A stretch of 64,000 bases of DNA, from the NCBI GenBank assembly GCA_003970805.2, contig CP051152.1, positions 4,122,345 to 4,186,344 on the forward strand, read 5' to 3'. The stretch's first letter is position 1. Each line of letters opens with the position of its first letter. This DNA is from Undibacterium piscinae. Lineage in GTDB: Bacteria; Pseudomonadota; Gammaproteobacteria; Burkholderiales; Burkholderiaceae_D. This document shows positions 9,543-17,206 of the stretch, piece by piece. A program made the translations under genes and the position numbers. Below the pieces are notes generated by a model that saw only the letters and a program-made list of their open reading frames with translations, did no database searches and was not told the DNA's origin.

Positions 9543-10913
9543 TTAGCCAGCCTCGCCAAGTGTGGTTTGCACGGTGCTGATTCCCAGTTCGGCGCTGTCG
9601 ATGCCGGTACGCAGGTGTATCACGCTATTGGCCTTGATATCTTTACTCGAACGTATCAGTTTGCCCTTATGGTCGCTCAGGATCGCATAGCCACGCTCGA
9701 GGGTTCTCTGCGGATTGAGTAACTCCAGTTGTGTCTGTAAATTGTCCAGCGTACGGCGGTTTTGTTGTAGCTGGCGCTGCGTGGCATCGGTAAGCCGACG
9801 CTGGGCAGCTTCAAGATGCAGGCGGGCGGTCGCGCAGTCTGGTCGTCTGGCGGCCAGACGCGCCTGCCATTGCCCGAGTATTGTCTGCGCCTGTTGTAGC
9901 GGCATATGGCTGGCATAGCGCAGGCGTTGTGAGCAATTTTGCAGTTGCAGGCGTTTGCCGGCAATCGCGGCCAGCGGGCTAAGCAGGCGGCGCGCAGACC
10001 AGTCCAGGGTTTGCGCCTGGTTTGTCAGTAGTCTTTGCATGCTGCGTTGCAAAGAGCTTTGGCTTTGCTTTAACTGCTCCAGCCAGTCGGCACGCGCGCT
10101 TGCCGCCAGTTCGGCCGCAGCGGTCGGGGTAGGGGCGCGCATGTCGGCGGCAAAGTCGGCAATCGTAAAGTCCGTCTCGTGCCCGACCCCGCTGATGACC
10201 GGCATGCTGCAATGGGCAATCGTACGCGCCACGATTTCAGCGTTAAACGACCACAGGTCCTCTATGCTGCCGCCGCCGCGACAAACCAGCAGTACATCAC
10301 ATTCTTCGCGGGCCGAGGCGGTGGCGATAGCTTGCGCGATTTTCTCCGCTGAGCCTTCACCTTGCACCGGAGTCGGATACAAAATCACTTCTATATGCGG
10401 TGCGCGCCGGTGCAAGGTCGTGAGTATGTCGCGTAAGGCCGCCGCCTGTGGGCTGGTGACTATTCCTATGCGTCGTACGAAGGCGGGAATGGTGCGTTTG
10501 TTGGCTGTGTCGAACAGGCCTTCACTGGCTAGCCGCGCCTTGAGTTGTAAAAAAGCTTCATACAGGTTGCCGACCCCGGCCCGGCGTATCGCTTCCACGT
10601 TGATCTGATAATCGCCGCGCGGCGCATACAGGCTCACCAGCGCGCGCACTTCCACCTTATCGCCTTCGCGCGGGGCAAAATCGGCATATTGGGCACGCCC
10701 GCGAAACATCACCGCCTTCACCTGCGCCGCGCTGTCTTTCAGGGTGAAATACCAATGTCCCGATGCGGCGCGGGTGAAATTGGAAATCTCTCCGGAAACC
10801 CAGGTCAGCGGGATGTTGCGCTCCAGAAGTTGCGCAACCGCTTGGTTGAGCGCGGAGACTGTGATGACAGAGCCGGTGGCAATTGGGTTAGTCAAACGGG
10901 ATTGAGGAATCAT
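9543..10913 (-). CDS. xseA: Exodeoxyribonuclease VII large subunit
   Basis: 456 residues, family length. The N-terminal OB-fold (about residues 18-115, including [20 protein letters not shown] and MFRGRA) binds single-stranded DNA. The catalytic domain follows with [32 protein letters not shown] and [31 protein letters not shown] long coiled-coil C-terminal region binds XseB. Exonuclease VII degrades single-stranded DNA from both ends to acid-soluble oligonucleotides in repair and mismatch correction. The small subunit XseB is not in the window. The start at ATG 10913 has only a weak ribosome binding site. The gene is divergent from exbB, with the DnaA/IHF repeat array between. Confidence 0.95.
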
Positions 10914-11079
10914 AAGGGCTGTAGGGCTAAAAGCTGTCCACAGAAGCGTGGAATGGCCGCCAGAATGTCATTAAGCCCGGCTGATGTCAAAAAAAATCTG
11001 GATATTTTATGTAAGTGCTTGATTTTTATAGTAGAAGTTATTCTGCCTATCGTTTTGGCAGGACTATAAATGCCTTATG

Positions 11080-11144
11080 AATCAAGGACTTCGGGGTGCT
11101 GAAAGTTACTTATGCACAAACTTATCCACAAAATCTGTGGAAAA
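11080..11144 (+). repeat. Array module 1 (IHF-like site + DnaA boxes)
   Basis: IHF-like AATCAAGGACTTC (last base deviates), perfect TTATCCACA at 11122-11130, inverse box TGTGGAAAA at 11136 (8/9 match as TTTTCCACA). Confidence 0.75.
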
Positions 11145-11218
11145 TCTGAACTTGGGATGCGTGGCAATAGCGGTTTGTGCGCTGCCATATTTAGTGGCAG
11201 ATAGGAAATATTGAGTAA

Positions 11219-11282
11219 AATCAATAGCTTAGTTTTGTTTGTAAGGCTTGCACACAATCTTATCCACAAAATATGTGTAGAA
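11219..11282 (+). repeat. Array module 2
   Basis: Perfect IHF consensus AATCAATAGCTTA, perfect TTATCCACA at 11260-11268, inverse box TGTGTAGAA at 11274 (7/9), extra direct half-box TTGCACACA at 11248. A second inverse box (TGTGGATAT) lies at 11293. Confidence 0.85.
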
Positions 11283-11388
11283 ATTCCTGTCTGTGGATAT
11301 GTTACTTGCTGTTATCTTAATTTTTTTATCGGAAAGGGTAAAAAACCTAGGCTGCCTAAATAGTTTGCATGAGATAAAAAATTATTTA

Positions 11389-11452
11389 AATCAATTACTT
11401 AGCCTGATCTAATGGGCTTCTTCACAATGTTATCCACAAAATATGTGTAGAA
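11389..11452 (+). repeat. Array module 3
   Basis: Perfect IHF consensus AATCAATTACTTA, perfect TTATCCACA at 11430-11438, inverse box TGTGTAGAA at 11444, further inverse box TGTGGATAT at 11454. An AT-rich run precedes it (11370-11390). Confidence 0.85.
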
Positions 11453-11557
11453 CTGTGGATATATGCTATTTGGGCTTTAAAACTTTCTTTTAATTATTTA
11501 AATCATATAAAACCGCGCTCTTGCCACTTTCTTGAGCAGGACTGTAATTTTCAATGA

Positions 11558-11621
11558 AATCATGGACTTAGGGATTGCAGCATCGCTTGTACACAATCTT
11601 GTCCACAAAATGTGTGCAGAA
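11558..11621 (+). repeat. Array module 4
   Basis: IHF-like AATCATGGACTTA (one mismatch), TTGTCCACA at 11599-11607 (8/9), direct TTGTACACA at 11587 (7/9), inverse TGTGCAGAA at 11613. Confidence 0.8.
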
Positions 11622-11728
11622 AAAAGAGATACTTGCAAACGGGAGTGCCGATTTTTACGCTCATCCACAAATGAGAGTGCGGGGTTTTTAGCTGCCTATT
11701 TTGGTGGCACTCTTAAAATAGTCAATTA

Positions 11729-11792
11729 AATCAATCGCTTAGTTAGTAAGCGGGGGCTTGTGCACAATCTTGTCCACATAATATGTGCAGAA
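11729..11792 (+). repeat. Array module 5
   Basis: Perfect IHF consensus AATCAATCGCTTA, TTGTCCACA at 11770-11778 (8/9), inverse TGTGCAGAA at 11784. Confidence 0.82.
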
Positions 11793-12064
11793 TGTGTGTC
11801 GATGACCAGTCATCCTGCGATGCACTGGTTCGCGCAAGCTCAAAAAGGGTTTTGATTTTTTTTTTCACGATTAAACGCATATCGTGGATTTTCTATGCCC
11901 CGATGTTTGTTGGTGCTGCTTGATGTTGGTTGGTGTTGTGCAGAAAATGCTTTTTTATTCAATTTAGTGAGAAACACTATCTTTGGCCGGCCCTTGGCAA
12001 AAAAACGGCGAAGCTAAAAGGCCGCTATTGCCTGATTATTGTGCAGAGGTATTTTATTGAATGA

Positions 12065-12128
12065 AATCAATTGCTTAGTGTTTTAGTTAAGGCTTGCACA
12101 CAATCTTATCCACATTAGCTGTGCAGAA
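12065..12128 (+). repeat. Array module 6
   Basis: Perfect IHF consensus AATCAATTGCTTA, perfect TTATCCACA at 12106-12114, inverse TGTGCAGAA at 12120. It follows module 5 by 336 bp, two periods. Confidence 0.85.
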
Positions 12129-12234
12129 AAAAGGCGCGGAAGTATAAAAAATGCTTTTTTAATAGTTTTTTGAGCCGGGTCAGCTCGTTTCCGGCCTCTG
12201 CCTATTTTCTTTGCACTTGATGTTTTATCTTTAA

Positions 12235-12298
12235 AATCAATCGCTTAGTTTTAACTCCAGCACTTCCTAACAATGTTATCCACAATTAATGTGCGAAA
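12235..12298 (+). repeat. Array module 7
   Basis: Perfect IHF consensus AATCAATCGCTTA, perfect TTATCCACA at 12276-12284, inverse half-box TGTGCGAAA at 12290. Confidence 0.85.
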
Positions 12299-12403
12299 CT
12301 ATGAAGTTATGCACGAAAGCATAAACTTGCCTGGTTTTTAGCCTGGGAAAGAGTCGGAATGCTGCTGTGCCACATTCTTGAGCAGCCATCTGATAGTGAT
12401 TAA

Positions 12404-12467
12404 AATCAATGACTTAAGGCATTTTTTTGCGTTTGTACACAATATTGTCCACATATTATGTGTAGAA
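12404..12467 (+). repeat. Array module 8
   Basis: Perfect IHF consensus AATCAATGACTTA, TTGTCCACA at 12445-12453 (8/9), direct TTGTACACA at 12433, inverse TGTGTAGAA at 12459. Confidence 0.83.
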
Positions 12468-12574
12468 CATTGGGTGTTTTTATCTGGTATAGAGGTAGTC
12501 GCTATGGCATTGCATTTGGACTATGAGCGGTAGTGCGCTGAGTAATTCTTTGGCATGGGGATTACTTCTTTTAG

Positions 12575-12638
12575 AATCAATGACTTACCTTTGTTTTTGT
12601 AAGATATCCACAGTTTTTCACACAGAATTTGTGTAAAA
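12575..12638 (+). repeat. Array module 9 (degenerate main box)
   Basis: Perfect IHF consensus AATCAATGACTTA. The expected box position 12616 carries only TTTCACACA, but an intact-core box ATATCCACA lies 12 bp earlier (12604-12612). The inverse box TGTGTAAAA sits at the expected 12630. Confidence 0.7.
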
Positions 12639-12778
12639 CATCCTGATTTGCTGTGTGCGAGTCGCTGGAAGTAAGGCACCCTAAAATTTCCGGTGATTTC
12701 AATCGCAGCCACTTGCTCATAGAGACACACTGCGCTACATTGCGGGGTTAGATTCACACCCCTCTTTAGGAGTTTCAT

Positions 12779-13384
12779 TTGTTCGCCATTATTCAAGCTG
12801 CTGGTTGGCCTATCTATTTTTTACTCATCGCCTCGATTATTGCGCTGGCATTGATACTTGAACGTACTTTGTCTCTGCGACGTGAGCGCATACTGCCGAA
12901 AACCTTGCTCGATGAGGTTATTCGCGTCTACCACTCAGGCAAAATCAAGCAGGAAGTGATAGACCAGCTTGCCGGTAATTCGCCTTTGGGAAAAGTGTTG
13001 GCGGCCGGATTGCGCAATGTTGACGCGCCGCGCGAAGTCATGAAGGAATCGATAGAGGAAGCCGGACGCGGCGTTGCGCATGAGCTGGAGCGTTTCCTGA
13101 CAACGCTGGGTACGATCGCCTCGCTGGCGCCGTTGATGGGCTTGTTCGGTACGGTGGTGGGGATGATAGAAATTTTTGGCTCCCAGACTTCTTCTGGCGC
13201 CAACCCGGCACAACTGGCGCATGGTATTTCCGTGGCCTTGTACAACACTGGCTTTGGTTTGCTGATCGCTATGCCAGCCTTGATTTTTTACCGTCATTTC
13301 CGCGCACTGGTTGATACCCTGGTGGTCGATATGGAACAACAGGCGGTAAAGTTTGTCGATACTGTTCACAGCGCGAGAAAATAA
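12779..13384 (+). CDS. exbB: ExbB/TolQ/MotA-family proton channel subunit
   Basis: 201 residues. It forms the proton-conducting inner-membrane complex that energises outer-membrane transport with ExbD and TonB. Three membrane segments are visible: residues about 9-27 (GWPIYFLLIASIIALALIL), about 113-135 (LGTIASLAPLMGLFGTVVGM) and about 155-178. The LAPLMGLFGTVVGM motif is the MotA/TolQ/ExbB signature. The start is a TTG at 12779, decided by AGGAG six bases upstream; no ATG is available nearby. It is followed one base later by exbD, as an operon. No tonB is in the window, so ExbB versus TolQ is judged from the short length and the pairing; tolA, tolB and pal are absent. Confidence 0.88.
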   Translation: MFAIIQAAGWPIYFLLIASIIALALILERTLSLRRERILPKTLLDEVIRVYHSGKIKQEVIDQLAGNSPLGKVLAAGLRNVDAPREVMKESIEEAGRGVAHELERFLTTLGTIASLAPLMGLFGTVVGMIEIFGSQTSSGANPAQLAHGISVALYNTGFGLLIAMPALIFYRHFRALVDTLVVDMEQQAVKFVDTVHSARK

Positions 13385-16928: not shown

Positions 16929-17124
16929 CGCCAAAATGTTTGCAAAAAAGATTTTCAGTTCTTCAATTCCCTGATGTCAGCAGCCGAGCCTGGCTCTATT
17001 GCAATAAGTCGCACTAAGTTGCACTAAGGCTCCATCCGTAGGGGCGGCGTAATCAGACGGAAGTAAGTTTTCTTGTGTTACATCTTAGGGCATGGGCTGG
17101 TAGCGCCAAGTAATTTGTTCTTGG

Positions 17125-17206
17125 GTCGTTGTTATTGTTTGTTGTTATTGAGTTGTTATTGGGTTGTTATTGGGTTGTTGTTATTGTGTTATTGTTGTTG
17201 TATTAC
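17125..17206 (+). repeat. TTGTTATTG-type low-complexity repeat upstream of hppA
   Basis: Within the 390 bases between adk and hppA lies an 80-base pyrimidine-poor run built of GTTGTTATTG/GGTTGTTATT units (at least six partial copies). The plus strand carries almost only T and G with some A. The rest of the gap (16930-17124) shows no gene. The run lies in the presumed 5' untranslated region of hppA. Confidence 0.7.

What the first reader, a model, noticed from the sequence alone, without database searches (positions are those of the whole stretch)
11080..12638. A regular array of nine IHF-site/DnaA-box modules, far from any replication gene
Each module has an IHF-consensus site (AATCAATNRCTTA, six or more perfect matches to WATCAANNNNTTR), then a DnaA box TTATCCACA or TTGTCCACA starting exactly 40 bp after the ATCAA (41 in module 1). 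All nine are in one orientation. The IHF consensus and the DnaA box are established knowledge, and both are recognised here by direct reading. In E. coli, IHF with clustered DnaA boxes occurs at oriC, and also at datA and DARS2, which inactivate or recharge DnaA. A large uniform array between xseA and exbB, with no dnaA, dnaN, gyrB or rpmH, matches none of these. Candidates are a datA-like DnaA sink or a new kind of origin.
Basis: partly seen in the sequence, partly recalled or inferred. Interest (0 to 1): 0.95.

Follow-up and report, generated by a model that had tools for sequence, protein, structure and literature searches.

The report
Nine-copy DnaA recharging array (DARS2-like)
Between the genes xseA and exbB of an Undibacterium-like bacterium lie nine copies of a DNA module laid out like E. 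coli's DARS2 site, so the array likely recharges the replication starter protein DnaA; between related bacteria the gaps separating the copies change mostly by one or two turns of the DNA helix.

Summary
In detail: nine modules in one orientation in the xseA-exbB gap. Two things were missed. Each module carries three DnaA-box sequences, not one: box III, 3 bp, box II, 5 bp, inverted box I, the orientations and 12/14-bp steps of the E. coli DARS1 and DARS2 cores. Beyond the IHF site lies a Fis-like 15-mer, so the order core-IHF-Fis is that of DARS2. It is not the origin: it lies 1.2-1.5 Mb from the broad GC-skew flip. Of 80 named loci found with ExbB, 51 have 4-9 modules, 16 one, 8 none. Between nearest arrays, 28 of 30 spacer changes of 3-26 bp are one or two helical turns; like for like, 20 of 21 against 61 of 295 outside the array. 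IhfA, IhfB, Hda and a Fis-family protein are encoded. Best reading: a tandem, helically phased array of DARS2-like DnaA-reactivating modules. Single DARSs are known; my searches showed no such array in print. No binding or activity was tested.

The parts
11045..11144 (+). Module 1: Fis-like 15-mer 11045-11059, IHF-like AATCAAGGACTTC from 11080, DnaA boxes III 11110-11118, II 11122-11130, I (inverted) 11136-11144
   Evidence: three boxes score 7/7/7 of 7 fixed bases of TTNTNCACA
11184..11282 (+). Module 2: Fis-like 11184-11198, IHF from 11219, box III 11248, II 11260, I 11274-11282
11354..11452 (+). Module 3: Fis-like 11354-11368, IHF from 11389, box II 11430
11523..11621 (+). Module 4: Fis-like 11523-11537, IHF-like AATCATGGACTTA from 11558, box II 11599
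11694..11792 (+). Module 5: Fis-like 11694-11708, IHF from 11729, box II 11770
12030..12128 (+). Module 6: Fis-like 12030-12044, IHF from 12065, box II 12106 (after a 336-bp step, twice the usual one)
12200..12298 (+). Module 7: Fis-like 12200-12214, IHF from 12235, box II 12276
   Evidence: boxes III and I weaker, 5 and 6 of 7
12369..12467 (+). Module 8: Fis-like 12369-12383, IHF from 12404, box II 12445
12540..12638 (+). Module 9: G-N13-C 12540-12554, IHF from 12575, boxes III 12604 (ATATCCACA), II 12616 (TTTCACACA), I 12630; degenerate box II, 9.1 bits on the core matrix, not among the matches
   Evidence: same 12/14 steps by reading
9543..10913 (-). xseA, left flank of the array (also in relatives)
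12779..13384 (+). exbB, right flank of the array (also in relatives)

Best explanation
The locus is a tandem array of nine modules, each with three DnaA-box sequences in the order, orientation and spacing of the E. coli DARS core, then an IHF-like site and a Fis-like site in the order found in DARS2, and it likely works as a multi-copy station that would turn spent ADP-DnaA back into ATP-DnaA. Shown by sequence: the three-box geometry (start-to-start 12 and 14), the IHF site about 40 bp from box II on the box-III side, the Fis-like 15-mer beyond it, conservation at xseA-exbB, one orientation, and spacers that change mostly by helical turns. Inferred: ADP-DnaA binds boxes I and II head to head and loses ADP, as reported for E. 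coli DARS; IHF bending and Fis switch each module on; helical phasing puts modules on one face so that they can join one large complex; copy number sets how much ATP-DnaA is regenerated. Hda, which in E. coli makes ADP-DnaA, is encoded, so there should be substrate to recycle.
For: E. coli DARS1 boxes at 2608/2622/2634 of L103 and DARS2 boxes at 1636/1650/1662 of L102 have steps 14 and 12, box I opposed; PMC5742627 section 20 (read) says the spacing is the same in both and box I is opposed to II and III. Of 282 box-II sites, 87% have an inverted 9-mer with 6 or more of 7 fixed bases at +14 and 82% a direct one at -12. The matrix from these sites scores DARS1 25.5 and DARS2 24.5 bits, the E. 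coli oriC region 16.8, datA 10.6, and has 2 hits of 14 bits or more in 1.4 Mb of own-genome strands outside the window, both beside hemE. IHF consensus with one mismatch or less at -43..-39 in 247 of 344 modules; G-N13-C with AT-rich centre at -79..-75 in 296 of 344, 18 of 344 at control offsets. DARS2 order core-IBS-FBS: and PMC4245941 passages; a primer in a PMC4585315 passage places the core. IhfA, IhfB and Hda over cut-off, Fis-family model just over. Phasing.
Against: No binding or nucleotide-exchange data. The strict Fis consensus GnnYAnnnnnTRnnC is met at -77 in only 34 of 343 modules; the dyad TGC-N11-GCA could belong to another protein; the Fis candidate passes NF002517 by 0.2 bits and falls short of the E. 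coli-type model NF001659 (88.5 against 99). IHF and Fis sites sit closer to the core than in E. coli. Box III often reads TTGCGCACA, one base off. DARSs in E. coli are single, so the copy number is unexplained. Four of six loci titled Herbaspirillum have no module. Outside the family the IHF-box pattern is rare (20 genomes outside the family in a draw of 399 from the order, 7 of those 20 at xseA-exbB), and of two 2-Mb f31 genomes scanned one has no core hit (L059) and one 16.8 bits (L061). Three-box patterns are common in the class (296 of 369 genomes), so a core alone does not prove function. PMC4245941 (passage) calls Fis and the DARS2 core specific to gamma-proteobacteria related to E. coli.
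Confidence: 0.7

Rival explanations
1. A datA-like locus: IHF-bent DnaA boxes that would promote ATP-DnaA hydrolysis and damp initiation.
For: IHF site plus DnaA boxes in each module; datA is another E. coli locus with both.
Against: datA lacks the 14/12 head-to-head core and scores 10.6 bits against 24.5-25.5 for the DARS cores; its nearest opposed pair is 12 bp apart; minimal datA is described with one IHF site and no Fis site, whereas these modules also have a Fis-like site.
Confidence: 0.12
2. A plain DnaA titration sink: 27 boxes hold DnaA away from oriC, without changing its nucleotide.
For: Nine modules times three boxes; titration on the chromosome is argued for E. coli (PMC12371093, passages).
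Against: A sink needs neither IHF and Fis-like sites at fixed distances nor spacers that change by helical turns. The array is far from the likely origin, whereas that paper describes boxes accumulating towards it.
Confidence: 0.1
3. A replication origin or an origin remnant.
For: DnaA boxes and IHF sites also occur at oriC; the E. coli oriC region reaches 16.8 bits on the matrix.
Against: No skew flip in the window; the flip is in 2.6-2.95 Mb, with oriC-like units carrying ACTACTACTA runs at 2686650 and 2687480; the array has no such run; oriC boxes are described as head-to-tail.
Confidence: 0.01
4. A DnaA-, IHF- and Fis-controlled promoter region for exbB or xseA.
For: It fills the divergent gap; distances from the array to the two genes also tend to change by helical turns (9 of 12; 3 of 4 on the exbB side and 6 of 8 on the xseA side).
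Against: Up to nine modules over 1.6 kb in one orientation; the last module lies 93 to 445 bp from exbB in different species.
Confidence: 0.05

Closest known systems
E. coli DARS2 (rppH-mutH)
   Same: Three-box core with steps 14 and 12 and box I inverted; IHF-like sites on the box-III side of the core; Fis site beyond them.
   Different: One required core in E. coli, nine modules here; about 100 bp per module against 455 bp; IHF and Fis sites closer to the core; different chromosomal place; I found no counterpart of the phased repeats in the passages read.
E. coli DARS1 (bioD-uvrB)
   Same: Same core geometry. The cores beside hemE in this family resemble it: 0 of 33 have the IHF consensus at the module position, 2 of 33 within -120..-20.
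   Different: Single, and described with only a short regulatory region; no array. Of the hemE cores 14 of 33 still have a Fis-like 15-mer.
E. coli datA
   Same: DnaA boxes plus an IHF site.
   Different: Boxes 2, 3 and 7 with one IHF site; no 14/12 head-to-head core; matrix score 10.6 bits.
IHF/DnaA arrays of another family of the order (f49; L067, L068)
   Same: Three modules with an IHF site 39 bp before TTATCCACA, 134-216 bp apart.
   Different: By reading, boxes run head to tail in 12-bp steps; no DARS-core hit of 8 bits or more; no XseA, ExbB or ExbD in the 3-kb loci.

Membership tests
DARS (DnaA-reactivating sequence) | Core of three DnaA boxes, box I opposed to II and III, with the spacing shared by DARS1 and DARS2 | tested here: met
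   9 of 9 window modules have 12/14 steps (module 9 by reading), 8 of 9 with a strong box II; 87% and 82% of 282 sites; E. coli cores measured
DARS (DnaA-reactivating sequence) | Releases ADP from ADP-DnaA | not testable with these tools
   needs purified proteins
DARS2 type | IHF-binding site required for activity | tested here: inconclusive
   sequence present: exact consensus in 7 of 9 window modules, 247 of 344 modules at one mismatch or less; binding and requirement untested
DARS2 type | Fis-binding site beyond the IHF site | tested here: inconclusive
   G-N13-C AT-centred 15-mer in 296 of 344 modules (18 of 344 at control offsets), G-N13-C in 9 of 9 in the window by reading; strict consensus only 34 of 343; Fis-family protein encoded
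datA | One IHF site with essential boxes 2, 3 and 7; ATP-DnaA hydrolysis | tested here: not met
   layout differs; hydrolysis not testable
oriC | Skew flip, unwinding element with DnaA-trio, head-to-tail boxes | tested here: not met
   searches find these near 2.69 Mb, not at the array

The most novel reading that the evidence does not exclude
A DNA machine not described before: a polymer of DARS2 modules on one helical face that joins into a single giant complex, so that the number of modules, gained and lost by tandem duplication, tunes how much DnaA is recharged when the replication fork copies the locus about a third of the chromosome away from the origin.
Probability: 0.35. Interest if true: 0.9.

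Novelty: new variant of a known kind. Interest (0 to 1): 0.78.

Why it matters
DARS sites are known from E. coli as single elements. If the array recharges DnaA, many environmental bacteria control initiation with a repeated, helically phased, copy-variable version, and copy number (0 to 9 modules across the loci seen) becomes a natural dose series for testing how DARS dosage and position set initiation timing. It also offers a compact, roughly 100-bp version of DARS2 with the same order of parts, useful for structural work on the head-to-head DnaA complex.

Tried and rejected
Origin reading: rejected by GC skew in 35 stretches of 20 kb (700 kb of 4.19 Mb) plus the window. The flip is broad: skew is near zero at several samples between 2.76 and 2.92 Mb, so skew alone does not separate 2.687 Mb from dnaA. 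Origin at dnaA: one strict box upstream in G000, 0-2 in the 13 dnaA loci looked at, no ACTACTACTA run in them (records that begin at dnaA lack the upstream part and were not looked at).

RNA reading: no Rfam match at gathering score in 10500-13200.

Phasing tests. Pooled spacings gave a period of 10.85 with R 0.50 (n 262, 0 of 1000 random sets reach it), but related arrays are not independent, and the same test on the 71 distinct spacing values is not significant (719 of 1000). An earlier run with exact boxes gave 99 of 2000 (random) and 74 of 2000 (jitter) for distinct values. A first pairwise count gave 31 of 40 changes in phase. I rely on changes between nearest arrays: arrays with at least four modules, same number of modules, no spacer differing by more than 26 bp and at least two unchanged; 34 arrays joined by 22 edges, window not included. 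My intended neutral control, the array's flanks, was not neutral (9 of 12 in phase), so I used indels outside the array that are not divisible by three (61 of 295; on the same terms 20 of 21 in the array).

I first took E. coli DARS2 boxes at 1952-1986 of L102 as the core; the order of sites in PMC4245941 and the deletion primer in PMC4585315 put it at 1636-1670, which has the same geometry.

Class-wide genomes with many cores (G720, G860, G926) have them mostly scattered.

Full report
What is there. The gap between xseA and exbB (window 10914-12778) holds nine modules in one orientation. Each has, from left to right, a G-N13-C 15-mer whose G lies 76 bp before box II (77 in module 1; by reading), an IHF-like sequence (ATCA 40 bp before box II, 41 in module 1), then three DnaA-box sequences: a direct one 12 bp before box II, box II itself, and an inverted one 14 bp after it (module 9 by reading). 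Eight of nine box II are TTRTCCACA; module 9 has TTTCACACA. The window holds no other TTRTCCACA (8 found, 0.95 expected), and the three-box pattern with up to two mismatches is found 8 times against 0.02 expected.

Not the origin. The window lies at 4122345-4186344 of a single 4,186,344-bp contig. dnaA is at 2.948 Mb. In 35 sampled stretches skew is negative from about 0.63 to 2.69 Mb, weak or near zero over most of 2.70 to 2.93 Mb, then positive to about 0.6 Mb across the contig end. At 2686.4-2688.7 kb three related units carry DnaA boxes followed by trio-like runs: ACTACTACTA at 2686650 and 2687480 and ATTACTACTA at 2688255. The array is 0.345 of the chromosome from this likely origin and 0.283 from dnaA.

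The known pattern it fits. In E. coli K-12, DARS1 has boxes at steps 14 and 12 with box I opposed, and so does DARS2 at 1636/1650/1662 of L102. PMC5742627 (section 20 read) says the spacing is the same in both and that box I is opposed to II and III; [quoted passage not shown] Read on the minus strand, each module is box I, II, III, IHF, Fis-like. DARS2 is core, IBS1-2, FBS2-3 (PMC4245941, passages); in L102 IHF-like sites lie at 1729 and 1745 and a Fis consensus at 1781, on the box-III side. Order and side agree; the module is more compact.

Relatives. The pattern IHF plus 20-35 bp plus box occurs in 152 of 294 family genomes and 23 of 44 genera, with one backward-control match seen. In a draw of 399 genomes of the order 30 match, 20 of them outside the family, with three backward-control matches seen. 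Of the first 30 family loci, 26 carry XseA, ExbB or ExbD beside it; of the 20 outside the family, 7 do. Of 80 named loci found with ExbB, the best 80 of a capped list, 73 have at least one direct TTRTCCACA in the gap; 9 inverted ones occur over all 80. With a 38-column core matrix at 17 bits, 72 of 80 have a module: 16 one, 51 four or more, the most nine. Loci titled Undibacterium, Massilia, Duganella, Pseudoduganella and Rugamonas mostly have arrays, as do 5 of 6 titled Janthinobacterium; two of three Noviherbaspirillum loci and all six loci L179-L184 (Denitromonas, Oryzomicrobium, Uliginosibacterium, a Rhodocyclaceae MAG) have one; four of six titled Herbaspirillum have none. The matrix has 2 hits of 14 bits or more in 1.4 Mb of own-genome strands, both beside hemE, and scores DARS1 25.5, DARS2 24.5, the oriC region 16.8 and datA 10.6 in E. 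coli.

IHF and Fis. Of 344 modules, 247 have the IHF consensus at one mismatch or less at the expected place and 296 the Fis-like 15-mer, against 18 of 344 at control offsets; the strict Fis consensus is met at -77 in 34 of 343. IhfA, IhfB and Hda pass NCBIfam cut-offs; the Fis candidate passes a Fis-family model by 0.2 bits but not the E. coli-type Fis model, and is 40% identical to E. coli Fis over 80 residues.

Helical phasing. Module spacings pile up near 117, 128, 138, 149, 160, 170, 182, 192 and 203 bp, with smaller groups such as 123 and 143. Joining nearest arrays by a minimum spanning forest, 85 of 115 spacer comparisons differ by 2 bp or less; of 30 that differ by 3-26 bp, 28 are 9-12 or 20-22 bp (binomial 2e-13 against 7 of 24 lengths). 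On lengths not divisible by three this is 20 of 21, against 61 of 295 outside the array. Against: the test on distinct spacing values alone is not significant, and the array's flanks also tend to change by turns (9 of 12), which I cannot explain.

Position. In 12 one-contig family genomes whose places were listed, the array lies 0.147 to 0.310 of the chromosome from dnaA, 11 of them 0.274-0.310 (sizes rounded by the tool). This may be synteny alone.

Second locus. Beside hemE, 19 of 19 family genomes checked have at least one core of 20 bits or more, 3 of 4 of family f49, neither of 2 in f31 nor the 1 in f15. Of 33 such cores none has the IHF consensus at the module position and 14 have a Fis-like 15-mer. 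In G000 it is at 2653055, 34 kb from the likely origin, between hemE and a start that I recognise by eye as priA. So the genome has a core-only locus and an IHF/Fis-type array, a parallel to DARS1 and DARS2.

Class-wide. The three-box pattern with one mismatch is in 296 of 369 genomes of the class, with no backward-control match in the rows shown; G000 has 9, the most; G860 8, G720 7 and G926 6, mostly scattered.

Known or new. DARS-like sequences in other proteobacteria are in print (PMC10380432 section read; PMC5742627 passages). Searches for arrays, this locus or this family listed no such report; I saw those listings, not the papers, apart from the six papers that I opened (PMC10380432, PMC4585315, PMC4245941, PMC8682772, PMC5742627, PMC12371093; passages and the two sections named). 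I did not look up the original DARS paper of 2009, and most subscription papers are not held. I call it a new variant of a known kind. Family and genus groupings of named loci beyond their titles are recalled.

Noticed in passing
L021:10437-12510 (G000 2686.4-2688.7 kb): Three tandem oriC-like units with DnaA boxes and DnaA-trio-like runs, within the broad GC-skew flip and about 260 kb from dnaA: a likely triplicated origin away from dnaA.
   Followed up: partly
L095, G000 2653055 (-); L262-L287: A second DARS-like locus, one or more cores beside hemE in 19 of 19 family genomes checked, without the IHF consensus at the module position (0 of 33 cores).
   Followed up: partly
L067, L068 (about 1150-1550 on the minus strand): Another family of the order has a three-module IHF/DnaA-box array whose boxes read head to tail in 12-bp steps, beside a gene that looks DUF427-like by eye; a possible datA counterpart.
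   Followed up: no
L049 (minus strand, about 176-1290): Five units at 245-246-bp steps, nearly identical in the printed stretch: recent growth of the same array by tandem duplication.
   Followed up: no
window 11770-12106: The 336-bp step equals two usual steps; TGTGCAGAA at 11937 may be a remnant of a decayed module.
   Followed up: partly
L162, L170, L171, L173: Four loci titled Herbaspirillum have a 200-230 bp xseA-exbB gap with no module: probable loss of the array.
   Followed up: no
window 17115-17205: Tandem repeats of 11-14 bp (TTGTTATTG) at the start of an ORF that looks like a proton pyrophosphatase.
   Followed up: no
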